Source: an uncultured Neomegalonema sp.
GTDB lineage: Bacteria; Pseudomonadota; Alphaproteobacteria; Rhodobacterales; Rhodobacteraceae
Assembly: GCA_938008165.1 (NCBI GenBank)
Contig: CALLLP010000037.1
Location: 1-55,604 of the forward strand
Direction of reading: 5' to 3'
Length of the DNA stretch: 55,604 bases
In this document: positions 4,916 through 55,604 of the stretch, piece after piece
Numbering within the stretch: the first letter of the stretch is position 1
Layout: each line of letters begins with the position of its first letter
Program-made: the position numbers and the translations under genes
The notes under the pieces: model-generated
The model's database searches: none
What the model saw: only the letters and a program-made list of their open reading frames with translations
Told to the model about the DNA's origin: nothing

Positions 4916-4950
4916 AATTTCCTGCTCGATCATCATCAAGGAGCCGTGCC

Positions 4951-5406: not shown

Positions 5407-5473
5407 TCCCGCTGCCGCGACCTCTGGCCTGCTCACCGGAGGTCGCGGTAATCGTGGGGGGGAGGGCTGCGGA

Positions 5474-7312: not shown

Positions 7313-7575
7313 AGGATTCTCCATCGGCATTCAGGGTCAAAGGCACCTGAAGGCGACGGAGGAGGGCGCCTCAGCGCCCTGTCGTCACCGCATCAGTACC
7401 CTTTTGGGGGGAAGCGGAAAAGTTCATGAATGTCTCGGTCCAGTATTAAACATGCGCGGGTCTTAGGGCTTTTCCCTCCTACTCGCAACCCTTCATGGCC
7501 CGCCCGTCTTTCGGTGATAGGGGGCGATGGACCCATGCGTTGCCACAGGGTCGCGGCGACGATAGAAGCGCATGC
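7313..7575. other. Divergent intergenic region before fluC
   Basis: About 260 bases between the divergently read ABC gene and fluC. It holds a hairpin AGGGCGC-CTCA-GCGCCCT at 7363-7380 without a T-run, so probably a leader structure of the ABC transcript or chance rather than a terminator. A GGCGATGG sequence near 7524 recalls the start of fluoride riboswitches, but the rest of that consensus is not present. Confidence 0.3.
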
Positions 7576-7956: not shown

Positions 7957-8975
7957 AGGGCGAGATGATTGCCATCGAGAACGCCGATGACGGGCGCAGG
8001 CTCGACCGTTGGCTGCGCGAGCGCTATCCGCAGCTCAATCAGGGGCGCATCGAAAAGCTGCTGCGCAAGGGGGATATCCGGGTCGATGGTGGCAAGGTAA
8101 AGTCCAATTTCCGCCTGGCCGAATGGATGACCATCACCATCCCGCCCCTATCCGACGATCCCGCCGCCCCCACACGCGGGGGCAAGCCGACGATCTCCGA
8201 GGCCGATACAAGGCTGATTCAGGGGATGGTTCTCTACGAGGACGATCATGTCATCGTCCTCAATAAACCCCCCGGCATTCCGGTGCAGGGCGGCACGGGC
8301 CAGACGCGCCATATTGACGGCCTGCTGCCCGCTCTGGCGGGGGATGGCGAGCGACCAAAACTCGTTCACCGGATCGATAAGGATACATCGGGCCTGCTGG
8401 TTCTGGCGCGTTCGGGCATGGCCGCGCGCAACCTGACATCGGCATTCCGGTCCAAGGCGGCGCGCAAGACCTACTGGGCTGCCGTCATCGGCTTGCCAAA
8501 ACCGCGCGAGGGTACGATCAAGGCGGCGCTGGCAAAAATGCCCGGCTCGCATGGCGAAAAAGTCATGGTCATTGACCGCGACGACCTGCCCTATCAGCCC
8601 GATGCCAAGCGCGCCGTCACCGATTACGCGACGATGGACACCGCGGCCCAATTGGCGTCATGGCTGACCCTGCGCCCGGTGACGGGGCGCACGCATCAAT
8701 TGCGGGTGCATTGCTCGACCATGGGTCATCCGATCATCGGCGATGGCAAATATGGCCCCACCGCCGAGGAGGCCGAACGCCGCATTACCGGGGCCGTTAG
8801 CCGCAAGATGCACCTGCATGCCCGTCACATCGTTATCCCACACCCGGAAAAGGGCCGCCCCCCTCTCGATCTGCGCGCGCCCCTGCCTGAGCACATGGCC
8901 CATAGCTGGGATCTGTTCGGTTGGGATGCAAAACGGACGGATGATGACGAATTTTTGCCGGATTGGGCCGAATGA
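7953..8975 (+). CDS. RluA-family rRNA pseudouridine synthase (RluC-like)
   Basis: A 340-residue protein with an N-terminal S4 RNA-binding domain (about residues 10-75, RRLDRWLRERYP) and a RluA-type catalytic domain. The catalytic aspartate is in HRIDKDTSGLLVLAR, and RTHQLRVH marks the active-site region further on. It isomerises uridine in ribosomal RNA; domain order and length best fit RluC, which modifies 23S rRNA, but RluD-like or tRNA specificity cannot be excluded. It overlaps fluC upstream and the HAD gene downstream by four bases each, so the operon is tightly coupled. Confidence 0.87.
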   Translation: MKGEMIAIENADDGRRLDRWLRERYPQLNQGRIEKLLRKGDIRVDGGKVKSNFRLAEWMTITIPPLSDDPAAPTRGGKPTISEADTRLIQGMVLYEDDHVIVLNKPPGIPVQGGTGQTRHIDGLLPALAGDGERPKLVHRIDKDTSGLLVLARSGMAARNLTSAFRSKAARKTYWAAVIGLPKPREGTIKAALAKMPGSHGEKVMVIDRDDLPYQPDAKRAVTDYATMDTAAQLASWLTLRPVTGRTHQLRVHCSTMGHPIIGDGKYGPTAEEAERRITGAVSRKMHLHARHIVIPHPEKGRPPLDLRAPLPEHMAHSWDLFGWDAKRTDDDEFLPDWAE

Positions 8976-9640
8976 GCGACCTTCGACTGATCGTCTTCGA
9001 TTGTGATGGCACCCTGATCGACAGCCTGTTCGCGATCCAGCACGCGATGGAGCAGGCGTTCGATGCGGTATCGCTGGACCAGCCCACGGCGGAGGCGGTG
9101 CGCGGCATCGTCGGCCTGTCGGTCCCGCAAGCCGTTGCCGCGCTCGCCCCCGACCATGCGCCCGATACCCTTGCCGCGCTCGACCGGGCCTTTCGCGATT
9201 CCGCGCTCGCCTATCGGGAGGCGAATCCGCAGGATAACGGGCGGCTCTATCCCGGCACGCGGGAGGTGTTGCAGCGGTTGCACGCGCCCGAAACGCTGAT
9301 GGCGGTGGCCACGGGCAAGGCGCGGCGGGGGCTGGAGCATACGCTCGATGCCTTTGCCCTGCGCCATTTTTTCACCGCGACGCAAACGGCGGATGATGCG
9401 CCGTCAAAGCCGCATCCGGGGATGTTGCAAAATTGCGAGCGGCTGACGGGCGTTGCCCCGGCGCGCACGGTGATGATCGGGGATACCAGCTTTGATATGG
9501 CCATGGCCCGCGCCCATGGATGCACGGCCATCGGGGTCAGTTGGGGCTATCACGATGTCGATGCGTTGCATGGGGCGGGCGCTCATGCGGTCATCGACGA
9601 TTTCGCCGATCTCGACGAGGTATTGGAGGCGCTTCTATGA
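8972..9640 (+). CDS. HAD-IA family phosphatase (Gph-like)
   Basis: A 222-residue haloacid dehalogenase-like hydrolase. Motif I FDCDGTLIDS has the nucleophilic Asp and the acid/base Asp, motif II is in ATGKA, the Lys of motif III is in KPHPGM, and motif IV is GDTSFDM. A helical cap lies between motifs I and II as in phosphoglycolate phosphatase and beta-phosphoglucomutase-like enzymes. The start overlaps the pseudouridine synthase stop (ATGA), and its own stop overlaps the chaperone start. Substrate unknown; a small phosphorylated metabolite such as phosphoglycolate is plausible. Confidence 0.87.
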   Translation: MSDLRLIVFDCDGTLIDSLFAIQHAMEQAFDAVSLDQPTAEAVRGIVGLSVPQAVAALAPDHAPDTLAALDRAFRDSALAYREANPQDNGRLYPGTREVLQRLHAPETLMAVATGKARRGLEHTLDAFALRHFFTATQTADDAPSKPHPGMLQNCERLTGVAPARTVMIGDTSFDMAMARAHGCTAIGVSWGYHDVDALHGAGAHAVIDDFADLDEVLEALL

Positions 9641-10332
9641 GTCGACCGTGGCAGGAAGCGTTGGTCGAGGGTGACGCGCCGCCCTATGCGATCACGCTGG
9701 GCGGTAGGCCCGTCCGCACCCCAAGAAAACGCGCCGTCACGGCCCCCAGTCGCGCGCTGGCCGAAGCGATCGCCGCCGAATGGCGGGCGCAGGGCGACAC
9801 GGTCGATCCCAAGACGATGCCGATGACCCGCTACATGAATTCGATCCTCGATACGGTGGCCGATCACCGGGCGGATGTGATCGAGCAGGTCGCCGCCTAC
9901 GGGGGCAGCGATTTGCTCTGCTATCGCGCCGAGCGCCCTGACAGCCTCGTCACGCGACAGGCCCAAGAATGGGATGGGCCGCTGACTTGGGCGGCGCAGG
10001 TGCTGCACGCCCCGATGATCGTGACCGCCGGACTGATGGCGATCGAGCAACCCGATGCGAGCCTTGCGGCCCTGCATGGGGCGGTCGAGGCGCATGACGA
10101 TACGGGATTGGCGGCGTTGCATGACCTGACCTCCTTTTCCGGCTCGCTCATCTTGGCCTTGGCGATCAGCAAGGGTCATCTGGAGGCCGAAGCGGCATGG
10201 AAAGCCAGCCGGGTAGACGAAGATTGGCAAATCGAAAACTGGGGCGAGGACGATCTCGCCACCAAGGCCGCCCATGACAAGCGCGCGGCCTTCATGGATG
10301 CCGCACGATTGCTTGATCTATCGCGGCCGTAA
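9637..10332 (+). CDS. ATP12 family F1-ATPase assembly chaperone
   Basis: A 231-residue protein of the ATP12 family, which in mitochondria binds the F1 alpha subunit during ATP synthase assembly and is kept in alphaproteobacteria. Recognised from the N-terminal GRPVRTPRKR, the EWRAQG segment, the DLLCYRAE motif and the C-terminal WGEDDLA. It is cytoplasmic, with no signal or membrane segment. It is the last gene of the fluC operon and starts inside the HAD stop codon. Its role in F1 assembly is inferred from the family; no ATP synthase genes are in the window. Confidence 0.9.
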   Translation: MSRPWQEALVEGDAPPYAITLGGRPVRTPRKRAVTAPSRALAEAIAAEWRAQGDTVDPKTMPMTRYMNSILDTVADHRADVIEQVAAYGGSDLLCYRAERPDSLVTRQAQEWDGPLTWAAQVLHAPMIVTAGLMAIEQPDASLAALHGAVEAHDDTGLAALHDLTSFSGSLILALAISKGHLEAEAAWKASRVDEDWQIENWGEDDLATKAAHDKRAAFMDAARLLDLSRP

Positions 10333-10341
10333 CCGGGGGTC

Positions 10342-10695
10342 TCAGGGGCGATAGGATTGCAGGCCCCGAAAGACGCTTTCCATACGCATCCAGAACAGGT
10401 GCTCGCCCGGATACCCGATGATCCGGCCGATTTCGCGCCCGTTATCGATCAACACAAAAGTCGGTGAGGCGCGCACGTTCTGCAACCATGACAGGTCGCT
10501 CGGTTTCGGTTTGTTGAGGCTGACGACACGCAGGGGGGCGGCTTGGCCTTCGCGGGTCTTGTGATAGTAATCGCCGACCTCATCCATCCAGCGGTCGCAC
10601 CAGTAGCAGCCCTTGGCATCGAACATCACCAGTTCCGCCGCCCAAGCGGGCAGGGGAGCAAGGGTCAGGATCATCGCGAATATCAGCTGTCGCAT
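10342..10695 (-). CDS. Periplasmic thioredoxin-fold protein (SoxS-like)
   Basis: A 117-residue protein with a signal peptide (MRQLIFAMILTLAPLPAWA) and a thioredoxin-like domain. The redox motif is CYWC (in KGCYWCDRW) and the cis-Pro region is RASPTFVLI. It resembles the small periplasmic thioredoxins called SoxS in thiosulfate oxidisers, which keep carrier proteins reduced. No sox genes are nearby, so a general thiol reductase role is just as likely. The start at 10695 has GGGAAG upstream; an ATG at 10710 would lengthen the signal peptide unnaturally. It reads convergently with the ATP12 gene, nine bases apart. Confidence 0.75.
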   Translation of the reverse strand: MRQLIFAMILTLAPLPAWAAELVMFDAKGCYWCDRWMDEVGDYYHKTREGQAAPLRVVSLNKPKPSDLSWLQNVRASPTFVLIDNGREIGRIIGYPGEHLFWMRMESVFRGLQSYRP

Positions 10696-10777
10696 CGAGT
10701 CTTCCCGCACAGTTCAATGGGTGTCTTTGATAGACGTATCACAGTGAACAAACCGTGTAAATCATCGCATCCGACCC

Positions 10778-12367
10778 TCAGAACCCGGCGGCGCAGCCGT
10801 CTTTCCGGGGGTCCGATCCGCCCGCATAGACGCCACTGTCGAGCCGGTGGATCAGTTGTGCGCCGCCAAAGCCGAAGGCGGAATCCGGGGTTTCCAGCGT
10901 GATTGCATGGCCCATTGTCGCCAGCGTGTCGAGCGCGTCTTGGGGCATCGACGTCTCGCAGGCAACGCCCAGACCTTCGGTCACGCGCCAGCGCGGGGCA
11001 TCGGCGGCGGTCTGGACATCCTGCCCCCAGACCTGTGTGCGCAGGATCATCTGGAGGTGTCCCTGTGCCTGCATCGGCCCGCCCATGACGCCAAAGGCCA
11101 TGCGCGGCGCGCCGTTTTCGGTCAGGAAGCCGGGAATGATGGTGTGGAAAGGGCGCTTGCCCCCGCCGACGAGATTCGGATGCCCCGGCTCCAGCGTAAA
11201 GCCGAGGCCCCGGTTCTGGAGGTGAATTCCCGTGCCCGGCACCACAACACCCGACCCGAATCCGGCGTAGTTCGACTGGATATACGAGACCATCATGCCG
11301 TTCGAATCGGCGGCGGCCAGATAGACCGTGCCGCCCCGTTTCGGTGCACCCGCTCCGAAATCCTGCGCCCGCTGCGGATCGATCAGGGTGGCGCGGCCTT
11401 TCAGATAGCCATCGTCCAGCAGATCGGCGGCTTGAACATCGGTCATGGCGGCGGGTTCGGCGACAAAGGCTTCGGCATCGCGCAGGGCCAGTTTCATCGC
11501 TTCCCACATCAGATGCAGCGCGCGGGGATCTTCGGGCGTCAGATCGCGGATGGGTGTATGCGACAGCATCCCCAGCGCCATGCAGGCCGCGATTCCCTGA
11601 CCGTTGGGTGGAATTTCGTGCAATTCCATGCCGTCGAAAGCTTTTTGGATCGTGCCGCACCATTCGGGCGCATTCGCGGCCATGTCATCGGCGGTCAGGA
11701 CACCGCCATGTGCGGCGCAATCGGCGGCGATCCGTTCGGCCAATGCGCCCCGGTAGAATGCTTCGCCCTTTGTCTGTGCGATCAGGCGCAGGGTCGCGGC
11801 GGCATCGGGATTCACGAACCGCTCCCCCGCGACGGGGGCGCGTCCGCCGGGCATGAAATGATCCCGGAACCCCGGCTGGCCTGCCAGATCCGCCGCTCCG
11901 ATCCCCCATAGCTTGCCGATGATGGGCGAGACGGCGAATCCGTGTTCCGCATAGCGGATCGCCGGTTCGAACAAATCGTCGAAGGGGAGCCGCCCGAACC
12001 GGTCTGACAGGGCGACCCAGCCGCCCACCGCCCCCGGAACCGTCACCGTATCCCATCCCCGCTCCGGCATACCGCCTGCAAAACGCTCCGGCGTCCAGGC
12101 GGCAGGGGCGCGGCCCGAAGCGTTGAGGCCGTGCAGCGCCGATCCGTCCCACAGGATCGCAAAGCCATCGGACCCGATTCCGTTGCCCGTCGGTTCCAGC
12201 ATCGTCAGGGCGATGGCGGTGGCGAGGGCGGCATCCACCGCATTGCCCCCGCGTGCCAGCATGGTCAGACCCGCCTGTGTCGCGAGCGGGTGCGAAGTCG
12301 CGACCATGTTCTCCGCCATCACCGCAGAGCGGCGCGAGGCGTAGGGGGGAACGGCGGGAAACTGCAT
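10778..12367 (-). CDS. Gamma-glutamyltransferase family protein
   Basis: A 529-residue Ntn-hydrolase of the gamma-glutamyltranspeptidase family, normally made as a proenzyme cut just before a catalytic threonine. The predicted cleavage Thr is in KRGGTVYLAAAD, about two thirds along, giving a large and a small subunit. Also seen are the N-terminal ATSHPLAT, the GGNAVDAALA segment and the GGKRPFHTIIP motif. There is no evident signal peptide, so it may be cytoplasmic as in the YwrD-type subgroup. It may hydrolyse glutathione or other gamma-glutamyl compounds. It is divergent from fabD. Confidence 0.88.
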   Translation of the reverse strand: MQFPAVPPYASRRSAVMAENMVATSHPLATQAGLTMLARGGNAVDAALATAIALTMLEPTGNGIGSDGFAILWDGSALHGLNASGRAPAAWTPERFAGGMPERGWDTVTVPGAVGGWVALSDRFGRLPFDDLFEPAIRYAEHGFAVSPIIGKLWGIGAADLAGQPGFRDHFMPGGRAPVAGERFVNPDAAATLRLIAQTKGEAFYRGALAERIAADCAAHGGVLTADDMAANAPEWCGTIQKAFDGMELHEIPPNGQGIAACMALGMLSHTPIRDLTPEDPRALHLMWEAMKLALRDAEAFVAEPAAMTDVQAADLLDDGYLKGRATLIDPQRAQDFGAGAPKRGGTVYLAAADSNGMMVSYIQSNYAGFGSGVVVPGTGIHLQNRGLGFTLEPGHPNLVGGGKRPFHTIIPGFLTENGAPRMAFGVMGGPMQAQGHLQMILRTQVWGQDVQTAADAPRWRVTEGLGVACETSMPQDALDTLATMGHAITLETPDSAFGFGGAQLIHRLDSGVYAGGSDPRKDGCAAGF

Positions 12368-44481: not shown

Positions 44482-45182
44482 GCTTTCTTCTGGGGCAATC
44501 CATGACCGGCGGCTATGGCGGGGCCGATATTCTGCATGATTGTACCATCGGTGTGGAGCGCGGCGAGATCGCGGTTGTTGTCGGGCCGAACGGCGCGGGC
44601 AAATCCACCGCGATGAAGGCCATTTTCGGGATGCTCTCCCTGCGCAGCGGCAGCGTGACGATGGATGGCGAGGATATCACCACGCTCGCCCCGCAGGCGC
44701 GCGTCCGCAAAGGCATGGGCTTCGTGCCCCAGACCGGGAATGTCTTTCCGTCCATGTCGGTCGAGGAAAACCTGGAAATGGGCGCGTTCATCCGCGAGGA
44801 CGATATCGCCGAGACGATGGCGCAGGTCTATGACCTGTTCCCCATCCTGCGCGAAAAACGCCGACAGCCTGCGGGCGAATTGTCGGGGGGACAGCGGCAA
44901 CAGGTGGCGGTGGGCCGCGCCCTGATGACCCGCCCCTCCGTGCTGATGCTCGACGAGCCGACTGCCGGGGTCTCGCCCATCGTGATGGATGAGCTTTTCG
45001 ACCGCATCATCGAGATCGCGCGCACCGGCATCGCCATTCTGATGGTCGAGCAAAACGCGAAACAGGCGCTCAATATCGCCGATAAGGGCTATGTGCTGGT
45101 TCAGGGGGCGAACCGATACACCGATACGGGCGCGGTCTTGCTGGCCGACCCGGAGGTGCGTCGGGCGTTTTTGGGCGGATAA
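44478..45182 (+). CDS. livF: Branched-chain amino-acid-type ABC ATPase LivF
   Basis: A 234-residue ATPase of the LivF type with Walker A GPNGAGKST, FVPQTGNVFPSMSVEENL as the Q-loop region, signature LSGGQRQQVAVGRALM, and Walker B VLMLDEPTAGVSP. The H-loop is in MVEQNAKQAL. It forms the second half of the ATPase pair. The permease genes livH and livM, expected next, are absent; the next gene starts 74 bases on and is an exporter-like protein. Confidence 0.93.
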   Translation: MSFLLGQSMTGGYGGADILHDCTIGVERGEIAVVVGPNGAGKSTAMKAIFGMLSLRSGSVTMDGEDITTLAPQARVRKGMGFVPQTGNVFPSMSVEENLEMGAFIREDDIAETMAQVYDLFPILREKRRQPAGELSGGQRQQVAVGRALMTRPSVLMLDEPTAGVSPIVMDELFDRIIEIARTGIAILMVEQNAKQALNIADKGYVLVQGANRYTDTGAVLLADPEVRRAFLGG

Positions 45183-45255
45183 GGGCCGCATAAAACGCCT
45201 ATTGATTGCAGGCCGATGCGGGTATGCTCGCTCGTGGAGATTATGCGGGGGGCAT

Positions 45256-47886
45256 ATGGGCCGGGGCGATCCTATCGATCAGAGCATGTTTCGCTTTATC
45301 TGGCGGTATTCCCGGCGCGATCAGGTGTCGATTCTGGTCATTGTGCTGCTGTCGTTGCCCTTCTATTTCCTCGCGCTCGACCTGCCCAAGACCATCGTAA
45401 ACAAGGCCATTCAGGGCGAGGGGTTCGAAGGGGGGCAAAGTCAAAGTGCCTTTGGGATCGGCTTGCCCGCCCTGCCGCCGTTCTGGGACAATGATGTCGT
45501 TCTGTTCGGCGGTTTCATGCTGGAGCGTGTGCCGTTTCTCGTCTGGATGAGCCTGCTGTTTCTGGCCCTCGTCATCGTCAACGGCTTGTTCAAATACACG
45601 ATCAACACGGCCAAGGGCCGTCTGGGAGAGCGGATGCTGCGCCGTTTGCGCTTTATGCTGTTCGACCGCATCCTGCGATTTCCGCCCGAACGCTATGGCG
45701 GGATGAGGGCGTCCGAACTCTCGACGATGATCAAGGATGAGGTGGAGCCGCTGGGCGGTTTCATCGGAGATGCCTATGTGCAGCCGGTTTTTCTGGGCGG
45801 GCAGGTCATCACCGCGCTGGCCTTTATCTTTCTTCAGAATGTGTGGCTGGGGGTTGTGGCGGGTGTCATCGCGCTGATTCAGGCGCTGTTGATCCCGCGC
45901 CTCCGGGTGCCGATTCTGGCGCTGGGGCGCGAGCGGCAATTGACCGCGCGGGCGCTGGCGGGGCGCATTGGCGATGCGGTTGACGGGATCGCGGAAATCC
46001 ATGTCAACGGCACATCCGCCTATGAGGGGGCGGCCATTGGCGGGCTGCTGGGGCGGATTTTCACGATCCGATTCAGCCTGTATCAAAAAAAGTTTCTGGT
46101 GAAATTCATCAATAACCTGCTCGCCCAGATGACCCCGTTCCTGTTCTTTCTGGTGGGCGGATATTTTGCGATTATGGGGCGGCTCGATGTGGGCCAGCTT
46201 GTAGCGGTCATCGTTGCCTATAAGGAACTTCCCGGCCCGATGAAGGAGTTGATCGACTGGGATTTGCGGCGGCTGGACGGGGCAATCAAATACGAGCAGG
46301 TCGTTTCGCAATTCGCCGCCGCCAAGCCCGTTCCCGTTGGGCCGCAGCAGACCAAAGAGACCGATATCGGATTGGGCGCGTCGCTGGAAATTGCGGATCT
46401 TGCGATTGCCGAGAACGATCAGGCCCTTATCGATCCCCTCACGATCACGCTGCCCCTTGTCGGAGCCACGGGGATGAGCGGCGCAGGGGCGGGGGCGTTG
46501 CTGGAGACCCTCGCGCGGCTGCGGATGCCTGAGCGCGGGGCGATCCGGTTCGGGGGGCGCACCCTCGCCGAGATTCCGGCCCCCTGCCTTGCCCGCGACA
46601 TCAGCTATGTCGGCGAGACGGTTCATCTGGGCGGGGGAACGGTGTTCGATACGCTGGCTTATGGCCTGTTCCATGCGCCTCCGCAGGCCCCTGACGATGC
46701 GACGGTGCGCGAGGCGCGGCGCACGGGCAATCCGGTCAGCGGGGCAGAGGGTGACTGGATCGATTATGCCCGCGCCGGGGCCGCGACACCCGATGCGCTG
46801 AAGGCTGCGATGATCGATGTGATGGCGGTCGTGGAATGCAAGGCCGATCTGTATTCATGGGGTCTCAATCACCCGGTAGATACCCTGATCGATGCGCCGC
46901 GTATGATGCGCGCGCGCCGTCTGGTCGCCGATTCCATGCAGCGTTCTGGCTGGACCAACCTTGTCGAGCGGTTCGATATCGATGCCTATAACCGCAATGC
47001 CTCGATCGGCGAGAACATCGTCTTTGGGGCCGTGTCCGGCGCACCGTTCGGACAGGGGAATCTGGCGTCGAATGACTATATGCTGTCTGTCATGCGGGCA
47101 TCGGGGATGCATGATGCGCTGATCGAGACAGGGCGAGAGATCGGCGCGATCATGGTCGAAATCTTTGCCGGTCTGTCGCCGGATAACCCCCTCGTCGAGC
47201 AATTCAGCGTTGTTTCGGGCGAAGAACTGCCCGACCTAAAGGATACGCTGGCGCGCAAGACGATGACGCAGGGGGATCGGTTCCGATTATTGGCGCTGGC
47301 CTTCCGATATTGCGAGGTCCGCCATCGCCTCGACCTGATGACCCCTGCGCTAGAGGCCGGAATTTTAAAGGCGCGGGCGCTGTTCCGGTCCGGGTTGCCG
47401 GAGGATCAACGCGATGCCGTCAGCTTCTACGACCCCGAACGCCCGACCACCGGCGCGCTGATGATCGACGATATTCTGTTCGGCAAGATCGTCGGGGATG
47501 CCGCCCATGCCCGCGAACGGATCGAGGCATTGGTCCATGATGTTCTCGATGCGGAGGGATTGCTGGATGTCGTGCTGGAGGCCGGTCTGTCGAGCGAAAC
47601 CGGAAACCGGGCGCGGCATCTATCGACATCGCAGAAGCAGCGCCTTGCCGTGGCCAGAGCCTTGCTTCGGCGGCCTCGTCTGTTGCTCATCAACCGCGCG
47701 CTCGCCACGCTCGACTCCGTACAGGAGGCGCGTATCATGGAAAATATCATCCGCCATCTTGAGGGCCGTGCCGTGATGGCCAGCCTTGGCAGCATAATTT
47801 CCGACGACGTGTTTGACCGGCATGTGGTACTCGGAAAATCAGGGTCGCAGCGTCAGGCGAGAGAGGGGCACGATGGGATTGAATGA
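45256..47886 (+). CDS. ABC-exporter-like membrane protein with degenerate NBD
   Basis: An 876-residue protein. Residues 20-335 are a type 1 ABC exporter transmembrane domain with about six helices. The nucleotide-binding part is abnormal: the Walker A-like GATGMSGAGAGALL (404-416) lacks the lysine, the signature is LSTSQ (789-793), and Walker B reads LLLINRALATLD (809-820) with Asn-Arg in place of Asp-Glu. An insertion of about 350 residues separates the Walker A-like strand from the signature. It is thus probably unable to hydrolyse ATP. The start at 45256 has GGGGGG ahead. It overlaps the cNMP-binding gene by 14 bases, linking the two in one unit. Confidence 0.85.
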   Translation: MGRGDPIDQSMFRFIWRYSRRDQVSILVIVLLSLPFYFLALDLPKTIVNKAIQGEGFEGGQSQSAFGIGLPALPPFWDNDVVLFGGFMLERVPFLVWMSLLFLALVIVNGLFKYTINTAKGRLGERMLRRLRFMLFDRILRFPPERYGGMRASELSTMIKDEVEPLGGFIGDAYVQPVFLGGQVITALAFIFLQNVWLGVVAGVIALIQALLIPRLRVPILALGRERQLTARALAGRIGDAVDGIAEIHVNGTSAYEGAAIGGLLGRIFTIRFSLYQKKFLVKFINNLLAQMTPFLFFLVGGYFAIMGRLDVGQLVAVIVAYKELPGPMKELIDWDLRRLDGAIKYEQVVSQFAAAKPVPVGPQQTKETDIGLGASLEIADLAIAENDQALIDPLTITLPLVGATGMSGAGAGALLETLARLRMPERGAIRFGGRTLAEIPAPCLARDISYVGETVHLGGGTVFDTLAYGLFHAPPQAPDDATVREARRTGNPVSGAEGDWIDYARAGAATPDALKAAMIDVMAVVECKADLYSWGLNHPVDTLIDAPRMMRARRLVADSMQRSGWTNLVERFDIDAYNRNASIGENIVFGAVSGAPFGQGNLASNDYMLSVMRASGMHDALIETGREIGAIMVEIFAGLSPDNPLVEQFSVVSGEELPDLKDTLARKTMTQGDRFRLLALAFRYCEVRHRLDLMTPALEAGILKARALFRSGLPEDQRDAVSFYDPERPTTGALMIDDILFGKIVGDAAHARERIEALVHDVLDAEGLLDVVLEAGLSSETGNRARHLSTSQKQRLAVARALLRRPRLLLINRALATLDSVQEARIMENIIRHLEGRAVMASLGSIISDDVFDRHVVLGKSGSQRQAREGHDGIE

Positions 47887-48343
47887 AGAGGTTGCGATTT
47901 TATCGACAATCCCGCTGTTTTCCAAGATCGCCATGCCGCAGCTCAAGCTGATCGCTTTTTCCTGCCAGCGGGTCATTTTTCCGGACGGTCAGGAGATTTT
48001 TCGTCAGGGCGAGGCGGGCGATTGCGCCTATATCTTTTTGTCGGGCTGTGCCGATGTGTTTTTTGAAACGCCGGAAGGATCCCGCAAGATTTCGTCGATT
48101 CGGATGCATCAAATCACGGGTGAAGTGGCCGTTCTGGCCGATGTGCCGCGCACGGCGACCGTGCGGGCGACTGGCGAGGTTGTCGCGCTGAAGCTCGAAA
48201 AGGACGTTCTGCTGCGCATCATGGAGGATTTTCCCGATGTGGCGATCAAGATCACCCGTTTGCTCGCCTGGCGGCTTCATAATACCATCGAGCATATGCG
48301 CACCGATGCGCCGGTGGAGCCGACAGAGGGCACTTCACAATGA
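47873..48343 (+). CDS. Cyclic nucleotide-binding domain protein
   Basis: A 156-residue protein that is essentially one cNMP-binding domain (about residues 15-130), with LFSKIAMPQLKLIAF, the FRQGEAGDCAYIFLSG glycine-rich part, and the phosphate-binding GEVAVLADVPRTATVRA with the key Arg. It has no helix-turn-helix, so it is not a Crp-type regulator by itself. It should sense a cyclic nucleotide and act on a partner, most simply the coupled membrane protein. It overlaps that gene and lies 111 bases before the cyclase gene. Confidence 0.92.
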   Translation: MGLNEEVAILSTIPLFSKIAMPQLKLIAFSCQRVIFPDGQEIFRQGEAGDCAYIFLSGCADVFFETPEGSRKISSIRMHQITGEVAVLADVPRTATVRATGEVVALKLEKDVLLRIMEDFPDVAIKITRLLAWRLHNTIEHMRTDAPVEPTEGTSQ

Positions 48344-48454: not shown

Positions 48455-51400
48455 ATGCAATATGAAGCACAGCCATGTGCATCCTGTGGCGAGGCGATTC
48501 CCGCCGAAGCCCGCTTTTGTTCGTTTTGCGGCGCGCCAGTTGCGCGTCAGCAGCGATCGACCGCCATCGATAACAGCGGAGAAAACCGCCAACTGACCGT
48601 CATGTTCTGTGATCTTGTCAGTTCCACAGCCTTGTCCAATCAGCTCGATGCCGAGGATTTGCGCGATCTCATTCGCGCCTATCAGGAAGTCTGCGCCGAT
48701 GCGATCGAGGCCTATGACGGCACGATCGGGCAGTATCTGGGCGACGGTGTGCTCGCCTATTTCGGCTATCCGAAGGCCAGCGAAAGCGCGGCGCTCCATG
48801 CGGCGGATGCGGCGCTCGATATCGTTAATGGCGTCATCGAGAAAAGCACCGCTCTGCTGCGCCGCCACGGAGTCGAGTTGTCGACCCGCGTTGCGCTGCA
48901 TACGGGCCGTGTCCTGATCGGCGAGATGGGCGCGGGGCAGACGCGCGACCGCCACGCCCTGACCGGAGCGACGCCAAACCTTGCCGCCCGCATTGAACAA
49001 ATCGCGCCCGTCAACGGCATCGCCATCAGCGCCCAGACCGCCGCCCTCGTCTCGCGCGCCTTCGAGGTTCAGACCTTGGGCCATCACGATCTCAAGGGAT
49101 TCGCGGACCCGATCGAGGTCTTTCAGGTCATGCGGAGGCGATGGGTCGTGCCTGTCCTGCCGGAGCGTAATTGCCCCTTGATTGGCCGGGATAACGAGCT
49201 TGAACAGCTTATGGCGGCCTGGACCAAGACGAATAAATCCTGCACTGCGCGCGTTTCGGTAATCGCCGAGCCGGGCATGGGTAAGTCCAGCATCGCCGCC
49301 GCTTTCATGGCGTCGATTGACCTGTCGCGGGATCGCGTGATCGAGATCAACGGAACCCTGCGCGACCGCAATACACCCTTTGCCTGCCTGCGCCGCGCCC
49401 TTGAGCGCTGGACCGGGCTTGGGGCGATTCATGCGGGGACATCATCGGAGGAACAGATTGCGCGCTGGTTCGGGGTGGAGACGCTCGACTCCTCGGTTCA
49501 TGCAACGACACTCTATCAGATTTTGACCGGCGAGATGGAGGATGGGAAAGAAGGGCGCGCCCGTGTGCTTGCCGCCTGTCGTGCCAGAATCGACATCATC
49601 CAAAAACCGATGGTGATTCTGGTCGAAGATGCCCATTGGGTCGATCCGTCCACGGCGGAGATGGTCGAGCATATCGTCGAGACAACGACAGGGGTGATGC
49701 TGCTGCGATTGTCGCGGCCCGATGCGGCGCCCTCTCCCAAACCGGAGCAGGAAACACGGATCGTCCTCTGCAAACTCGAAGCCCTTGCCTGTCGCCGGTT
49801 GATCGAGAATGTGGCGGGTGGTCCCGTTGAGGCCGAATTATCCAAGCGGATTACCCAAGTGTCTGACGGATTGCCGCTGTTTGTCGAGGAATTCACGAAA
49901 TCCCTGATTGAAAGCGCGGCAGTGATGCGGGTGCGCGGGGTGTTTCGACCGACGAACCTGCATACCCGGATCGCGACCCCCGCCTCGATCCTTGACCTGA
50001 TTACCGTGCGACTCGACTCCCTCGGCGGGGCAAAATCCCTCGCGCAGGTCTGCGCGGTACTGGGGCGCAGCTTTGACCGGGCCGCGCTTGCCGCCGTCAG
50101 CGGTGAGCAGGTCGATACGCTCGAAGCGATGCTGGGGCGGCTGATCGATGCGGGAATTTTGCTGCGGGAATGGAGCGGTCGGCTGACCTTTCGCCACGCG
50201 CTGTTCCAGACCGCCGCCTATGAAAGCCTCGTCAAGAGCGAGCGTCAGGCCCTGCATGGGCGCTTTCTCGACTGGCTGCATGAGCGCCCGAACCGGATGG
50301 AGGCGACGCCTCCCGAAACGATGGCCTTTCATCTCGAAGCCTGTGGGCGGGTGCGGGAGGCGATCGACCGCTATATGGAAGCGGGTATTCTGGCCGACCG
50401 TGCCTCGGCCAGCCTCGAAGCGGCGACGCATTTCAAGAAATGCTGCGATCTGATCCCAACGTTGCATAAGCGGGAGCGGATCGGGGCGCTTGCGCTCAAG
50501 GCGCAGGTGATGCTGGCCGGAGCCTTGCTGTCGGCGCGGGGGGCCGGGGCATCCGAGACACGCGATGCGTATGACGCGGCAATCCGCATCGCCGAAGGGT
50601 TGCCGGAATCCGAATGGCATTTCGCCGCTTATTGGGGATGGTGGCGCGTCTCCGAAAGCTTTGCCATGATGGCGGAGCGCGGAAGCTGGCTTGTCGATAA
50701 ATCCCGCTCGATGCAAGGGCTGGAATTCAAGCTTCAGGCCCAGCATTGCCTCTGGGCGAACGCGTTTCAGATTGCCGATTTCGACGCGTCGATCCGCAGT
50801 GCGCAGAACGGGCTGGAGCTTTATGAGGCGGGCCGGTTCTACGATAATGCGACGCTCTATGGCGGCCATGATTGTAAGGTCTGCGCCCTTGGGGAAATCG
50901 GCTTGGCGACATGGTTACAGGGCGCCGGGGATGAGGCGGTCGTCTCCGTCGATCAGGCAATTGCCCATGCAGAGCATCTGGATCATCTCGGATCACTGCT
51001 GCACGCGCTCGATATTGCGGTGATGCTTCACCATTACCGGCGCGATACCGACAGCACCCTGAATGTGGCCGAACGCCTGATTGCGTTGGCGACCGCCAAT
51101 GATCTGGAAGAATACCGCGCCAAGGGCGAAATCTTCACCGGCTGGGTGCAGGTGGAGCGTGGACATCGATGCAATGGCCTGAAGCGCATCGATAGGGGAT
51201 ATGCGATTCTGGAAGAGATCGGCACGCCGGAGGACTTTCCAGTCTATCAATCCATCCGTGCCCATGCCCTGTCGCATATGGGCGAGTTGGATCAGGCCCA
51301 AGGCGCTCTCCAGACGGCACAGGCCGTGATTGCCACCGAAGGGGTGAATTACTGGGGTGCAGAAATTGCGCGTTATCAAGCGGTTATCGAAAGCATGCGC

Positions 51401-51649
51401 CCCGAAGCAGATGGGGCGGCGATCCATGATCATCTCGATGATGCGTGCAGGCTAGCGCGCCAACAGGGGGCGCTGGCGCTGGAATTGCGGGCATGTCTGA
51501 CGCGGTTGAACTGGGCACGGCAAATGCGCGAGCCGATGGGCGATGCGTTGAAGGCGCTGCGCATCGTCCGGGATCGCTTTTCCACGAGCGCGAAGGGGCA
51601 TGAACTCGATGCCGCCGACGCCGCCCTCGCGTGCAGCACCATGGCATGA
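48455..51649 (+). CDS. Zinc-ribbon, class III nucleotide cyclase, NTPase and TPR-like protein
   Basis: A 1064-residue protein in four parts. A zinc ribbon (Cys8, 11, 22, 25) is followed by a class III cyclase domain (about 45-225) with metal-binding Asp53 (VMFCDLVSST) and Asp97 (LGDGVLAYFG) and the transition-state pair Asn175/Arg179 (PNLAARI). An AAA/STAND-like NTPase has Walker A AEPGMGKSS at 271-279 and Walker B ILVEDAHWVD near 390; a long helical TPR-like C-terminus follows. The positions that select adenine or guanine (Gln93, Ala168) are non-standard, so the product is unclear. Its stop overlaps the YcaO start (ATGA), tying it to the following pathway. Confidence 0.9.
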   Translation: MQYEAQPCASCGEAIPAEARFCSFCGAPVARQQRSTAIDNSGENRQLTVMFCDLVSSTALSNQLDAEDLRDLIRAYQEVCADAIEAYDGTIGQYLGDGVLAYFGYPKASESAALHAADAALDIVNGVIEKSTALLRRHGVELSTRVALHTGRVLIGEMGAGQTRDRHALTGATPNLAARIEQIAPVNGIAISAQTAALVSRAFEVQTLGHHDLKGFADPIEVFQVMRRRWVVPVLPERNCPLIGRDNELEQLMAAWTKTNKSCTARVSVIAEPGMGKSSIAAAFMASIDLSRDRVIEINGTLRDRNTPFACLRRALERWTGLGAIHAGTSSEEQIARWFGVETLDSSVHATTLYQILTGEMEDGKEGRARVLAACRARIDIIQKPMVILVEDAHWVDPSTAEMVEHIVETTTGVMLLRLSRPDAAPSPKPEQETRIVLCKLEALACRRLIENVAGGPVEAELSKRITQVSDGLPLFVEEFTKSLIESAAVMRVRGVFRPTNLHTRIATPASILDLITVRLDSLGGAKSLAQVCAVLGRSFDRAALAAVSGEQVDTLEAMLGRLIDAGILLREWSGRLTFRHALFQTAAYESLVKSERQALHGRFLDWLHERPNRMEATPPETMAFHLEACGRVREAIDRYMEAGILADRASASLEAATHFKKCCDLIPTLHKRERIGALALKAQVMLAGALLSARGAGASETRDAYDAAIRIAEGLPESEWHFAAYWGWWRVSESFAMMAERGSWLVDKSRSMQGLEFKLQAQHCLWANAFQIADFDASIRSAQNGLELYEAGRFYDNATLYGGHDCKVCALGEIGLATWLQGAGDEAVVSVDQAIAHAEHLDHLGSLLHALDIAVMLHHYRRDTDSTLNVAERLIALATANDLEEYRAKGEIFTGWVQVERGHRCNGLKRIDRGYAILEEIGTPEDFPVYQSIRAHALSHMGELDQAQGALQTAQAVIATEGVNYWGAEIARYQAVIESMRPEADGAAIHDHLDDACRLARQQGALALELRACLTRLNWARQMREPMGDALKALRIVRDRFSTSAKGHELDAADAALACSTMA

Positions 51650-52869
51650 TCCCGGATCGGAAGGGATGGCGCGCGGGGGGGCGGCGGGCATGTGACCCCG
51701 CGCAGACCTGGGCCAAGCTGTCGCCCTTGCTGCCCGTGATCGGAATTTCGCGGGTGGCGGATATTACGGGTCTCGACTGTATCGGCATCCCCGTTTTTAC
51801 CGCTTGCCGTCCCAATTCGCGGTCCCTGTCGGTGTTTCAGGGCAAAGGGGTCAGCATCGATGCCGCCCGCGTTTCCGCCGTGATGGAAGCCTATGAAACA
51901 TGGTGCGCCGAGCGCATCGACCGACCGCTGAAACTCGCCAGCATCGACGAGATCGTGCATTCCCATTCGCTCGTGGATGTGTCGCGCCTGCCCTTGATGA
52001 CGCCGGATGGGGTGGACCCGGCCTTGCCGTTTCTGTGGATCGAGGGGGAGGACATGCTTTCGGGGGCGCGCAAATGGCTGCCCTTCGAGATGGTCCATGC
52101 GAATTATGCCATCCCGGAGCCGCCCCATTCCGGCGGGTTTGCCGCGACGACCAATGGTCTTGCCTCTGGCAATACGCGTGAGGAAGCGGTGCTGCATGCG
52201 ATGATGGAGGTCATCGAGCGCGATGCCGTTACGCTGTGGAAGCTGGGCGAAAATGCGTGGGGCAACGAGACGGCGCTGCGGCTGGAAACGGTGACTGATC
52301 CCGCATGTGGGGCTGTGCTGCGCCGCTTTGCGGATGCGGGGATCGCTGTGGCGGTCTGGGATATGCGCTCCGATACCGGGGCGCCGTGTTTCCTGTGCCT
52401 GATCGCCGAACCGGGGGGCGAGACGGGCATGGCGGAATTTGGAGCGGGCGCGCATCCCGCACCCGAAGTGGCCCTCATGCGAGCCTTGACCGAGGCAGCG
52501 CAGGCCCGCACGACCTTTATCGCCGGAGCGCGGGAGGATATTCCCGATGCCGATTATGAGCCCGAAGCATTGGCCGAGCGCCGGGTGATGGCTGAAGCGT
52601 TGATGGGCGGTCTGACCCCGGAATGCGATTTCGCGGCGATCGCGTCGATGGAAACCGAGGATTTCGCCGGGGATATTGCGGCGACGCTTCAGGCGTTGCG
52701 CAAGATTGGCATCGGGGAGGTGATGGCCGTCGATCTCGACCACGCGCATCTGCCTTTTGCGGTTGTGCGCGTGGTCATACCGGGGTTGGAGGCGGCGCTG
52801 GAGGGGCCGTCATCGCCCTATGTCCCCGGCGACCGCGCATCGCGTTTGTTGAGGGAGCGCGACCGATGA
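51646..52869 (+). CDS. YcaO-type ATP-dependent peptide-modifying enzyme
   Basis: A 407-residue YcaO enzyme. The family uses ATP to activate peptide backbone amides, forming azolines or, with TfuA, thioamides. ATP/Mg-binding motifs are FQGKGVS, SAVMEAYETWCAE (paired Glu), NGLASGN, and EVIERDAV, and the C-terminal part reads RVVIPGLE then YVPGDRAS, typical of TfuA-associated YcaO proteins rather than azoline ones with Pro-rich ends. The start at 51646 overlaps the cyclase stop by four bases and the stop overlaps tfuA likewise. Its target is inferred to be the repeat protein at 54898. Confidence 0.92.
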   Translation: MIPDRKGWRAGGRRACDPAQTWAKLSPLLPVIGISRVADITGLDCIGIPVFTACRPNSRSLSVFQGKGVSIDAARVSAVMEAYETWCAERIDRPLKLASIDEIVHSHSLVDVSRLPLMTPDGVDPALPFLWIEGEDMLSGARKWLPFEMVHANYAIPEPPHSGGFAATTNGLASGNTREEAVLHAMMEVIERDAVTLWKLGENAWGNETALRLETVTDPACGAVLRRFADAGIAVAVWDMRSDTGAPCFLCLIAEPGGETGMAEFGAGAHPAPEVALMRALTEAAQARTTFIAGAREDIPDADYEPEALAERRVMAEALMGGLTPECDFAAIASMETEDFAGDIAATLQALRKIGIGEVMAVDLDHAHLPFAVVRVVIPGLEAALEGPSSPYVPGDRASRLLRERDR

Positions 52870-53609
52870 CGATTTGCGTCTTTCTGGGGCCGAGCCTGCC
52901 ACGGGCAGAGGCGGAGGCGATCCTGCCTGCGATCTATCTGCCGCCCGCCCGGCGGGGCGATGTGCTGGCCGCAATTCGCGCGCATGACCCCAAAGCCATC
53001 GCCTTGATCGACGGATATTTCGAGCAGGTGCCGTCGGTCTGGCACAAGGAGCTTCTCTGGGCGCTCGATCAGGGGGTTCGGCTCTATGGCGCGGCGAGCA
53101 TGGGGGCGCTGCGGGCGGCGGAACTGTCGCAATTTGGCATGAAGGGGATGGGGCGGATCTTCGATGCTTATATGGCCGGGCGGTTCGATCCGTTCGACGA
53201 CCCCTTCGACCGCGATGACGAGGTGGCGGTCGTTCATGGCCCGGCCGAAATCGGGTATCCGTCTTCCGAGGCGATGGTCGATATACGCGCCACCCTCGCC
53301 CGCGCATCACAGTCGGGCATCATCGACCGCGCCACGATGCACGGCCTGGCGGCGACGGCCAGCGCGATTTTCTACAAGCATCGCAGTTGGAAAACCGTTC
53401 TCGACAATGCGGATGTGCCCTCGGCCACGGTTGCCCCCCTGCGCGCATGGATTGCGCAGAACCGCATATCCCAAAAGCGCCTCGACGCCGCCGCCCTTTT
53501 GGGTCACCTTACAGATCGGGATTGGGATCGGGGTCGGGATTTCGAGATTCCTGCTTTTCGCTTCGAGCAGACATTGCTCTGGAACGATGCTGTTTCCGGT
53601 ATGGATTGA
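52866..53609 (+). CDS. TfuA-like protein
   Basis: A 247-residue TfuA-like protein, named from the trifolitoxin locus. TfuA proteins partner YcaO enzymes to deliver sulfur for thioamide formation. Seen are VFLGPSLPR at the N-terminus, ALIDGYFEQVPSVWHKE, GAASMGALRAAEL, FGMKGMGRIFDAY and the DDEVAVVHGP stretch, all hallmark segments. It overlaps ycaO by four bases and precedes the peptidase gene by 12 bases, with GAGGGGG as its neighbour's ribosome site. No nearby sulfurtransferase was found in the window. Confidence 0.93.
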   Translation: MTICVFLGPSLPRAEAEAILPAIYLPPARRGDVLAAIRAHDPKAIALIDGYFEQVPSVWHKELLWALDQGVRLYGAASMGALRAAELSQFGMKGMGRIFDAYMAGRFDPFDDPFDRDDEVAVVHGPAEIGYPSSEAMVDIRATLARASQSGIIDRATMHGLAATASAIFYKHRSWKTVLDNADVPSATVAPLRAWIAQNRISQKRLDAAALLGHLTDRDWDRGRDFEIPAFRFEQTLLWNDAVSGMD

Positions 53610-53621
53610 GGGGGTGCCGGG

Positions 53622-54848
53622 ATGAGTTTCTCACTCAATGATTTTTATCGACCCGGTGGAACGCGGTTCAGACTCTATGCCCAATCGCCCGTCTTGCCGG
53701 ATTTCAGCGAGCCGGAAATCGTCTGGGTCTCGTCGCCCGCCGGGTCGCTCGGTCCCGGCCCGTCCGATTTTCGCATGTTCGCGGTGCAGCCGATCGACAA
53801 GAAACCCTATGGCGACGATGCGCAATCGCCTTATCGCGGCCCCCGCGAAGCCCCGGCAATGCCCGGCCATGGGGGGCATTTCGATCATATTGCGCCCGGT
53901 GATCCGGCGTATCCTTGTGTCCATATGTTCGGCTCCGTTCGCCGGGTGCTCGATGTCTGGGAAACGTATCTTGGCGGCCCGGTTCACTGGCATTTCAACA
54001 TCACGCATCCCCGGCTTGAACTGATTGCGCATGTGCCATGGGATAATGCCCATTTCGGCTGGGGCTTTATGGAATGTGGCGAGGGCGCGGATGACAAGGG
54101 CGTGCAGCGTCCCTTTGCCCTGAATTTCGACATTCTCGCCCATGAAACCGGCCATGGCATGATCTTCTCGATCGTGGGAATGCCGACGCCCGAAACGCTG
54201 ACCACCAGTTATCGCGGCTTTCACGAATCCGCCTCCGATTGTGTGGCGATGATCTCGGCGCTGCATTTCGATCGGTTTGTCGATCATGTCTTGCGGGTTT
54301 GTCAGGGCAATCTCTATGTCGAAAACGAGATGAACCGGATCGGCGAGTTGTCGAAGACCCGGCAAATTCGCAAGGCATCGAACGCGCTCAAACTGTCCGA
54401 TGTGATCAGCGTGGATACGCCCTCCAAGGATGTCACCGGCAAGCAGGTGCACCAACTCGGACAGCCGCATACGGGCGCGATCTTCGATATCATGGTCGAG
54501 TTCTATCTGGATCGGCTGGTTTCGTCGCGGGTCGTGTCGCGGGAGATGGCCGATCATCAGCGCGAGGCGGCGCGTCAGGGCCGCGCGGATAAGGCCGATT
54601 GTGGCCGGTTTGCCGATGCCTTTGCACGTGAACCGGAGGTCTTCCGGCATGCCCTATGCGATGCGCGCGACATGCTGGGGCTGCGTCTGGCGGAGACATG
54701 GCGCCGGTTGACGCCCCATGACTTCGTATTCGGCAAGGAAATCGCGACCTTGCTGAAAGTAGATGCGGAGTTGAGCGGTAATCGTCACCGCCAGATGATA
54801 CTGGATTGTTTCGAATGGCGGGAAATTTCGATTAGCCTTTCGCGATAG
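53622..54848 (+). CDS. Zinc metallopeptidase (HETGH, gluzincin-like)
   Basis: A 408-residue protein with HETGH at residues 174-178 (two histidines and a catalytic glutamate) and FHESASD near 200-206, where Glu202 fits the third zinc ligand of the gluzincin pattern. It has no signal peptide, so it probably acts inside the cell. A histidine-rich part (GHGGHFDH) lies near residue 84. I do not recognise a named family beyond this. Placed directly between TfuA and the repeat protein, it is a good candidate for leader removal or cutting between repeats; other proteolytic roles are possible. Confidence 0.82.
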   Translation: MSFSLNDFYRPGGTRFRLYAQSPVLPDFSEPEIVWVSSPAGSLGPGPSDFRMFAVQPIDKKPYGDDAQSPYRGPREAPAMPGHGGHFDHIAPGDPAYPCVHMFGSVRRVLDVWETYLGGPVHWHFNITHPRLELIAHVPWDNAHFGWGFMECGEGADDKGVQRPFALNFDILAHETGHGMIFSIVGMPTPETLTTSYRGFHESASDCVAMISALHFDRFVDHVLRVCQGNLYVENEMNRIGELSKTRQIRKASNALKLSDVISVDTPSKDVTGKQVHQLGQPHTGAIFDIMVEFYLDRLVSSRVVSREMADHQREAARQGRADKADCGRFADAFAREPEVFRHALCDARDMLGLRLAETWRRLTPHDFVFGKEIATLLKVDAELSGNRHRQMILDCFEWREISISLSR

Positions 54849-54897
54849 ACGTGTGTAATTTGTGCTAGCAGATGATGCGATCTGAAGGGGCAGCACC

Positions 54898-55604
54898 ATG
54901 ACCACCACGGGTTTGACGCCGAGTAAAACGCTCACCCTCTACGGCAAGAGCGTGGATGCCCTGTTCGGTGCCAGTGCGGTTCCGCCTTCGATGCTGGCGG
55001 GCAATATCACCAAGAAAACGATTTCTGGGGCAAAATCTGCGGAATATTTCGATGGCGCTCTCGTGCAGGTCAGCGGGTATCGTCATGGTGACGAGGGCAG
55101 GCCCGTAAAACTGCCGAAACCCGTTATGATGCTTCTGGCCGGTGCTCCGAAGGACGAGTGTGACGAGGAGGATCCGGCGGAAAAGGTCTTTCCGGTTAAA
55201 AAATATCACCGATGGACGATCGATCACGATGCGGAAACGGTGGCGTTCGATCTGCTGGAAACGGATATTGCCGGGGCGCTTGGTGGCGGCAATGTCGAGG
55301 ATGATTTCGACGGCGCTGCGGCCGCGGCGGTGGTTGCGGGCGCTGGCGCGGGTTTTACGCTGCGCGGGGCCGATGGGCGGCTTTATTACGTGCCGGAAGG
55401 GTTGGACCGCTATGAAGTGCTCGATAACGCGGATCGGTCACCTTTATTAATCGCACCCGGTCACGATCGCGATGACCTGACGGTCCGTGAGTTGATCGAT
55501 GACGGTACCGGAGGAGCGATCCAATCCCGCGCGATGATGCAGAGCCGCGCGATGATGCAGAGCCGCGCGATGATGCAGAGCCGCGCGATGATGCAGAGCC
55601 GCGC
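54898..55604 (+). CDS. Repeat-tailed protein, candidate multi-core RiPP precursor (3' partial)
   Basis: An open frame from the ATG at 54898 (GAAGGGG ahead) that runs off the window, so the C-terminus is missing. Residues 1-210 form an acidic, mostly soluble-looking part with no recognised domain; it contains YFDGALVQVSGYRHGDEG, a single Cys at 88 and an Ala/Gly-rich stretch at 139-152. After DDGTGGAIQS the protein becomes perfect RAMMQS repeats (from residue 211), four complete within the window. No signal peptide is seen. The leader-plus-repeats layout beside YcaO, TfuA and a peptidase is what a multi-core modified-peptide precursor would look like; a structural repeat tail is the alternative. 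Confidence 0.75.
   Translation, partial: MTTTGLTPSKTLTLYGKSVDALFGASAVPPSMLAGNITKKTISGAKSAEYFDGALVQVSGYRHGDEGRPVKLPKPVMMLLAGAPKDECDEEDPAEKVFPVKKYHRWTIDHDAETVAFDLLETDIAGALGGGNVEDDFDGAAAAAVVAGAGAGFTLRGADGRLYYVPEGLDRYEVLDNADRSPLLIAPGHDRDDLTVRELIDDGTGGAIQSRAMMQSRAMMQSRAMMQSRAMMQSR
55528..55604 (+). repeat. 18-bp perfect tandem repeat coding RAMMQS
   Basis: Four identical copies of CGCGCGATGATGCAGAGC at 55528-55545, 55546-55563, 55564-55581 and 55582-55599, then five bases of a fifth at the window end. The copies are in frame with the protein starting at 54898 and have no synonymous variation. Array length is unknown. Confidence 0.97.

What the first reader, a model, noticed from the sequence alone, without database searches (positions are those of the whole stretch)
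51646..55604. YcaO-TfuA-metallopeptidase-repeat protein cluster: candidate new multi-core thioamide RiPP pathway
Seen: YcaO and TfuA overlap by four bases, a HETGH peptidase follows after 12 bases, and a protein with perfect hexapeptide repeats follows after 49. Known: YcaO with TfuA installs thioamides on peptide backbones (methanogen McrA, thioamitide-type and thiovarsolin-type products, the latter with repeated cores). Inferred: the repeat protein is the substrate, each RAMMQS being a core, and the peptidase releases or trims them. A Met-rich repeated core with a ~200-residue leader and a gluzincin maturase would be new to me.
Basis: partly seen in the sequence, partly recalled or inferred. 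Interest (0 to 1): 0.93.

Follow-up and report, generated by a model that had tools for sequence, protein, structure and literature searches.

The report
Repeat-core thioamide peptide operon with peptidase
This operon sets genes for a YcaO-TfuA enzyme pair and a zinc peptidase beside a protein whose tail repeats a short motif, and it is predicted to make families of short sulfur-containing peptides by modifying and then likely cutting those repeats; the same gene set recurs in many Pseudomonadota with different repeats.

Summary
YcaO, TfuA, a zinc peptidase of predicted thermolysin/fungalysin fold (PEP) and a repeat protein (REP) lie head to tail; the contig ends inside the repeat array. Of the 80 PEP loci kept, 67 have YcaO+TfuA and 64 of those have REP; the other 3 are cut by a contig end. 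In 147 related genomes PEP and leader-bearing REP occur in the same 15. REP is a conserved leader domain, predicted folded, plus a tail of tandem repeats, predicted disordered, that differ between species (SRAMMQ, SGARV, SARGM, GMNV). Repeats are under purifying selection (pN/pS 0.12, 56 arrays). 22 of 25 unit types share [G/R]-x-x-[M/V/L/I]; linkers of 0-3 residues explain periods 4-7. I read REP as a multi-core precursor, thioamidated by YcaO-TfuA and cut by PEP; both steps are untested. Against: two Rhizobium plasmids carry PEP+REP without TfuA on that replicon, 15 of 71 REPs show no array, and 18 other YcaO-TfuA loci lack both genes. Papers searched describe repeat-core thioamides (thiovarsolins) but not this family: a new variant of thioamide RiPPs.

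The parts
45091..47886 (+). ABC transporter, membrane and ATPase domains, possibly same transcription unit
   Evidence: PF00664 and PF00005; a similar-looking protein occurs in 3 of 85 related loci
47813..48343 (+). cyclic-nucleotide-binding protein (likely start 47873)
   Evidence: PF00027, E 1.5e-17; related cNMP-binding proteins in 11 of 67 YcaO-TfuA loci
48455..51649 (+). CYC: class III nucleotide cyclase + AAA_16 + long C-terminal region; overlaps YcaO by 4 bases
   Evidence: PF00211, PF13191; TIGR03903 E 3.2e-84 but below its cut-off; a cyclase lies within 4 kb of PEP in 54 of 67 loci
51646..52869 (+). YcaO, predicted ATP-dependent backbone thioamidation enzyme
   Evidence: PF02624 268.7 bits; best NCBIfam model TIGR03266 McrA thioamidation, below cut-off; best PDB match MJ1094 6pe3, E 3.6e-31
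52866..53609 (+). TfuA, predicted sulfide-delivering partner
   Evidence: PF07812 145.3 bits; PDB 6xp8, E 9.4e-25; Ser78 and Lys204 invariant in 65 of 65 rows
53622..54848 (+). PEP: predicted M36/M4-fold gluzincin without a Pfam match above cut-off
54898..55604 (+). REP: repeat precursor protein, cut by the contig end
   Evidence: homologue in 64 of 67 YcaO-TfuA loci
54898..55500 (+). REP leader domain (boundary approximate)
   Evidence: alignment A3; leader of relative L115 predicted folded, residues 1-111
55527..55604 (+). tandem array, 18-bp unit CCGCGCGATGATGCAGAG, encodes RAMMQS
   Evidence: 4.3 copies, 100% match

Best explanation
The repeat protein is likely a multi-core peptide precursor: its predicted folded leader domain would hold the substrate while YcaO and TfuA are predicted to replace backbone oxygen by sulfur (thioamide) in each repeat, and the neighbouring thermolysin-like zinc peptidase would then cut the tail into short peptides. 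Shown: gene order and co-conservation, purifying selection on the repeats, the shared [G/R]-x-x-[M/V/L/I] motif, and invariant residues in YcaO, TfuA and the zinc site of PEP. Model results: the folded leader, the disordered tail and the fold of PEP. Inferred: that REP is the substrate, that the change is a thioamide, and that PEP cuts REP. The cut is most likely just before the fourth, hydrophobic motif residue, because thermolysin-like enzymes prefer a hydrophobic residue after the scissile bond (recalled); that would release units such as M-Q-S-R-A-M or V-S-G-A-R. The cyclase next door would put the operon under cyclic-nucleotide control (inferred).
For: Co-occurrence: of the 80 best PEP loci (of 192 found), 67 have YcaO+TfuA; 64 of those 67 have REP; in the 3 without, the contig ends within 400 bases of PEP. 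Whole genomes: PEP in 15 of 147 relatives, leader-bearing REP in the same 15, TfuA in those 15 plus 3; in 385 genomes of the class (a set that overlaps the first), TfuA 21, full-length PEP 8, REP 7, each set inside the former, the missing REP lying off a contig end. Two database proteins carry TfuA and PEP in one chain (P0024, P0069; 120 of 544 hits listed). Purifying selection: pS 0.652, pN 0.081 over 56 arrays. Motif: 22 of 25 unit types at spacing 3, shuffle mean 9.1, 0 of 2000 as high; spacings 1, 2, 4, 5 not enriched; within arrays motif positions 1-3 vary 0-1.5%, linkers 7.3%, position 4 7.6% but 28 of those 30 changes stay within V, I, L, M. Five of 25 consensus units have no Ser, Thr or Cys (list), so azolines could not form within them, which favours thioamidation. 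Leader folded, tail disordered in the model of L115. YcaO nearest to the methanogen thioamide enzyme.
Against: No chemistry seen. R. etli CFN 42 p42c and a plasmid of R. leguminosarum CB782 carry PEP and a repeat-tailed REP with no TfuA on that replicon; CB782 has a TfuA on another plasmid, other replicons of CFN 42 were not checked. 15 of 71 REPs gave no array: 3 are cut by contig ends, the rest have few, degenerate or no repeats. 3 of 25 unit types lack the motif, and I found it by eye on the same data that I tested it on. A related PEP clade of 12 loci has no YcaO, TfuA or REP in the DNA held. No exporter recurs next to the cluster: one ABC ATPase group occurs in 20 of 85 loci but 2.4-9.6 kb away. 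YcaO and TfuA score below the cut-offs of the thioamidation equivalogs.
Confidence: 0.68

Rival explanations
1. REP stays whole: YcaO-TfuA thioamidate it as a protein, as with McrA or uL16, and PEP is a quality-control or unrelated peptidase.
For: Known YcaO targets include whole folded proteins (PMC5589413 and PMC13063428, passages); the leader is predicted to be a folded domain; no exporter recurs next to the cluster.
Against: The tail is predicted disordered and its sequence changes between species while repeats within one array are held constant; PEP is tied to REP and its zinc-site residues are invariant.
Confidence: 0.14
2. The repeats form a structural pentapeptide-type beta-helix and are not cores; YcaO-TfuA act on something else.
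For: Source annotation calls some REPs pentapeptide repeat proteins; L074 scores 38.1 bits on PF00805, above its 20.2 cut-off; L115 and L087 fall below it.
Against: Periods of 4, 5, 6 and 7 in homologues; the window protein and L034 have no PF00805 match; repeats of L115 predicted disordered; leader-bearing REP was not found in a genome without PEP among 147 and 385 whole genomes.
Confidence: 0.07
3. YcaO here makes another backbone change (azoline or amidine) rather than a thioamide.
For: SagD-type and other YcaO models also match, less well; 20 of 25 consensus units contain Ser or Thr (list).
Against: TfuA adjacent; best matches are thioamide enzymes; 5 of 25 consensus units lack Ser, Thr and Cys.
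Confidence: 0.08

Closest known systems
Thiovarsolins (Streptomyces varsoviensis var cluster; PMC6511847, passages read)
   Same: YcaO+TfuA, repeated cores in one precursor, family ranging from no repeat to five; products are N-acetylated thioamide tripeptides
   Different: No specific protease in the var cluster according to the paper; here a dedicated peptidase gene, a predicted folded leader domain, a nucleotide cyclase, up to 15 copies, and a [G/R]-x-x-[M/V/L/I] rule; amidinotransferase and ATP-grasp genes were not noticed among the 40 largest neighbour clusters, which were mostly not annotated
McrA glycine thioamidation by YcaO-TfuA (PMC5589413, passages)
   Same: Nearest YcaO and TfuA models and solved structures
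   Different: Substrate is one enzyme subunit, not a repeat protein; both models score below cut-off here
uL16 thioamidation by E. coli YcaO (PMC13063428, passages)
   Same: YcaO thioamidates a protein; site Met82 next to Arg81
   Different: No TfuA; recognises a folded surface
Fungalysin (M36) and thermolysin (M4) peptidases
   Different: Sequence below Pfam cut-offs; the window N-terminus and the six printed show no obvious signal or propeptide (read by eye)
TfuA-related clusters counted by Malit et al. 2021 (PMC8120280, passages)
   Same: More than a thousand such clusters in Proteobacteria, so some of these loci were probably counted
   Different: Main text holds no 'repeat' or 'metallo' by word search; supplements not readable here

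Membership tests
TfuA-YcaO thioamidated RiPPs | adjacent YcaO and TfuA genes | tested here: met
   4-base overlap; PF02624 and PF07812 far over cut-off
TfuA-YcaO thioamidated RiPPs | precursor gene beside them, conserved leader and variable core | tested here: met
   64 of 67 loci; alignment A3; 25 unit types. That REP is the precursor is inferred
TfuA-YcaO thioamidated RiPPs | thioamide in the product | not testable with these tools
   needs mass spectrometry
McrA-type thioamidation equivalogs (TIGR03266, NF033432) | score over the curated cut-off | tested here: not met
   236.5 against 365 and 198.4 against 235.2 bits
thiovarsolin family | repeated cores with YcaO-TfuA | tested here: met
thiovarsolin family | amidinotransferase, ATP-grasp and heme-oxygenase-like genes | tested here: inconclusive
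   not noticed among the neighbour clusters, not searched for one by one
Peptidase M36/M4 (gluzincins) | HExxH, third-ligand Glu in ExxxD, catalytic His, thermolysin-like fold | tested here: met
Peptidase M36/M4 (gluzincins) | Pfam gathering score | tested here: not met
   14.3 against 23.3 and 14.1 against 22.4 bits
Pentapeptide repeat proteins (PF00805) | Pfam gathering score, window protein and hexapeptide relative | tested here: not met
   no match for the window REP or L034; L074 of the 5-residue kind is over it
TOMM kinase/cyclase fusion (TIGR03903), for CYC | score over cut-off, kinase domain | tested here: not met
   283.7 against 705.75 bits, match starts at model position 277; no kinase domain listed

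The most novel reading that the evidence does not exclude
A large uncharacterised class of multi-core thioamide peptides in Pseudomonadota: one folded leader carries up to 15 copies of a tetrapeptide [G/R]-x-x-[M/V/L/I], the hidden unit behind repeats of 4, 5, 6 and 7 residues, and a cytosolic fungalysin-fold peptidase clips every copy before the hydrophobic residue, so that one enzyme set makes thioamide tetra- to heptapeptides under control of a dedicated nucleotide cyclase.
Probability: 0.35. Interest if true: 0.87.

Novelty: new variant of a known kind. Interest (0 to 1): 0.75.

Why it matters
It would give thioamide chemistry in Gram-negative bacteria a defined substrate family with 25 or more natural core sequences, a ready-made test set for what YcaO-TfuA accepts, and a dedicated protease that the thiovarsolin cluster was reported to lack. 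Strains named in the records (Roseobacter insulae, Labrenzia alba, Hoeflea poritis, Mesorhizobium waimense, Aestuariispira insulae) make it testable, and the tie to a nucleotide cyclase points to a signalling role.
Full report
What is there. Searches confirm every coordinate in the finding: YcaO 51646-52869, TfuA 52866-53609 (overlap 4), peptidase PEP 53622-54848 (gap 12), repeat protein REP from 54898 (gap 49) to the contig end. The window is contig C37 of an assembly of 56 contigs; the array, 18 bp x 4.3 at 100% match, runs off its end. Upstream, a cyclase gene overlaps YcaO by 4 bases and is preceded by a cyclic-nucleotide-binding protein and an ABC transporter. Named near relatives are uncultured Neomegalonema; the window genome itself is unnamed.

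Co-occurrence. A profile of 20 PEPs found 192 loci in named genomes, of which the best 80 were kept; the other 112 were not seen. Of the 80, 67 carry YcaO and TfuA; 64 of the 67 carry REP; in the other three (L043, L065, L107) the contig ends 377, 240 and 0 bases after PEP. One further contig (L074) begins at PEP and has REP. Twelve have none of the three in the DNA held (L094 has only 214 bases upstream) and form one side of a branch (support 100/99), 11 of them outside Pseudomonadota. In whole genomes, PEP is in 15 of 147 relatives, leader-bearing REP in the same 15, with three extra weak hits (E 1.3e-4 to 3.5e-4, model positions 95 and later) in genomes without PEP, and TfuA in the 15 plus three. 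In 385 genomes of the class, a set that overlaps the first: TfuA 21, full-length PEP 8 plus three weak partial hits, REP 7; the PEP without REP sits 84 bases from a contig end. The 18 YcaO-TfuA loci that have no PEP beside them show neither PEP nor REP within about 4 kb, while two positive controls show both. Two database proteins carry TfuA and PEP in one chain. These counts treat related genomes as separate rows, so they show linkage, not independent events.

REP anatomy. Homologues share a leader domain (alignment A3; consensus around FARIYGFSY.G.YYEL..PVLFLVHG and W.YD..D.T.RLDV..G.FE..LL). In the model of relative L115, residues 1-111 are folded (ten-residue means mostly 84-95) and 117-157 are under 50, that is disordered. 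No solved fold matches well. The tail is a tandem array in 56 of 71 loci: period 5 in 34, 6 in 20, 7 in 1, 4 in 1, with 3 to 15 copies. Within arrays, synonymous difference is 0.652 and non-synonymous 0.081, ratio 0.12, so the peptide sequence is held by selection and copies are not just recent DNA duplications. Between species the unit changes: SRAMMQ, SRAAMQ, SRAVMA, SRMAMA, SRGDMT, SGARV, SGSRV, SGAKV, SARGM, ARGAN, SGYSL, SGANL, GGGKV, RGASV, GMNV and more.

A hidden unit. Of 25 unit types, 22 contain G or R followed three places later by M, V, L or I, read around the repeat; shuffling residues inside units gives a mean of 9.1 and never 22 in 2000 trials, and spacings 1, 2, 4 and 5 give 7, 6, 3 and 2, no more than chance. 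Exceptions are SRSAAA, SARGM and ARGAN. Within arrays, positions 1-3 of the motif differ from the consensus in 6, 0 and 6 of 395 places, position 4 in 30 of 395 (28 of them exchanges among V, I, L and M), and linkers in 41 of 561. So a constant four-residue core with a linker of 0, 1, 2 or 3 residues accounts for periods 4 to 7. I saw the pattern first and tested it on the same sequences. Of sequences read later, an R. etli REP fits with GGAL, GGVM, GGFI, and P0151 fits in four of five units. Five consensus units have no Ser, Thr or Cys, so azolines could not form within them.

Mechanism. The best reading is a multi-core precursor, thioamidated by YcaO-TfuA on each core and cut by PEP. The hydrophobic fourth position is what a thermolysin-like enzyme prefers after the scissile bond (recalled), so I place the cut between positions 3 and 4; this is inference. 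Which bond is thioamidated is unknown. A cyclase lies within 4 kb of PEP in 54 of 67 loci, the nearest being long (900 residues or more) in 26 and shorter in 28; cyclase hits number 59 in 473 kb near PEP against 5 in 575 kb further out. A long one has cyclase and AAA_16 domains, a short one cyclase and TPR. A GNAT-like protein sits within 200 bases of a cyclase in 19 of the 20 loci of its cluster (two members tested, PF13302), which recalls the N-acetylated thiovarsolins, whose acetylation the authors ascribe to an endogenous enzyme (PMC6511847, passages).

Results against. R. etli CFN 42 plasmid p42c and an R. leguminosarum CB782 plasmid have cyclase, PEP and a repeat-tailed REP but no TfuA on the whole replicon; CB782 has a TfuA on a second plasmid. 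Eight other rhizobial plasmid loci that I opened have YcaO and PEP in the usual order, seven with an annotated TfuA between them and one (L218) without; the REP candidates read in seven of the eight show no repeats. A Nostoc plasmid has PEP with none of the others. Microvirga and Labrenzia/Roseibium (L090, L100) REPs also lack repeats. Some 5-residue REPs score as pentapeptide repeats and some are so named by their sources.

Known work. The papers searched (listings; passages in 19, 30, 31, 34, 35, 36, 103-105) describe thioamide RiPPs with repeated cores and more than a thousand TfuA-related clusters in Proteobacteria, but in what I saw none describes this leader family, the peptidase or the motif. 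Many subscription papers and all supplements were out of reach, so an earlier count or figure cannot be excluded. Verdict: a new variant of thioamide RiPPs, well supported as a gene system, unproven as chemistry.

Noticed in passing
L211 (R. etli p42c) 4028-7940 and L212: Cyclase, PEP and repeat-tailed REP without TfuA on the whole plasmid record; PEP relatives occur on 125 plasmid records, 115 of them Rhizobium.
   Followed up: partly
L213 (Nostoc plasmid) 6001-12190: A PEP homologue followed by ferritin-like, radical SAM and ferritin-like genes: the peptidase family may serve another pathway.
   Followed up: no
L192 5753-6668 and L204 5938-8113: Other YcaO-TfuA loci without PEP have long 15-residue (DDSQRHAANFIGTTP) or 10-residue tandem arrays next door; reading frame not settled.
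   Followed up: no
L057, L059, L064, L076, L090, L100, L214-L220: A repeat-free branch of REP; many share a PG.RSP..YA stretch and several end in HR.G[R/K]L, others in APQR.RD. In Microvirga PEP is convergent to REP-TfuA-YcaO-CYC.
   Followed up: partly
L077, L081, L084, L089 against L034-L037, L045: Within Neomegalonema two unlike versions of the cluster occur, SGARV/SGSRV and SRAMMQ, in different genomes.
   Followed up: partly
L049 and L069, TfuA C-terminus: Many TfuA proteins are about 430-460 residues long instead of 250; the extra part of the two tested has no Pfam match.
   Followed up: partly
L191, L192, L195, L197, L198, L227: Other YcaO-TfuA loci also sit beside a Crp-type or cNMP-binding protein and often a cyclase, so the cyclic-nucleotide tie may be wider than the REP system.
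   Followed up: no
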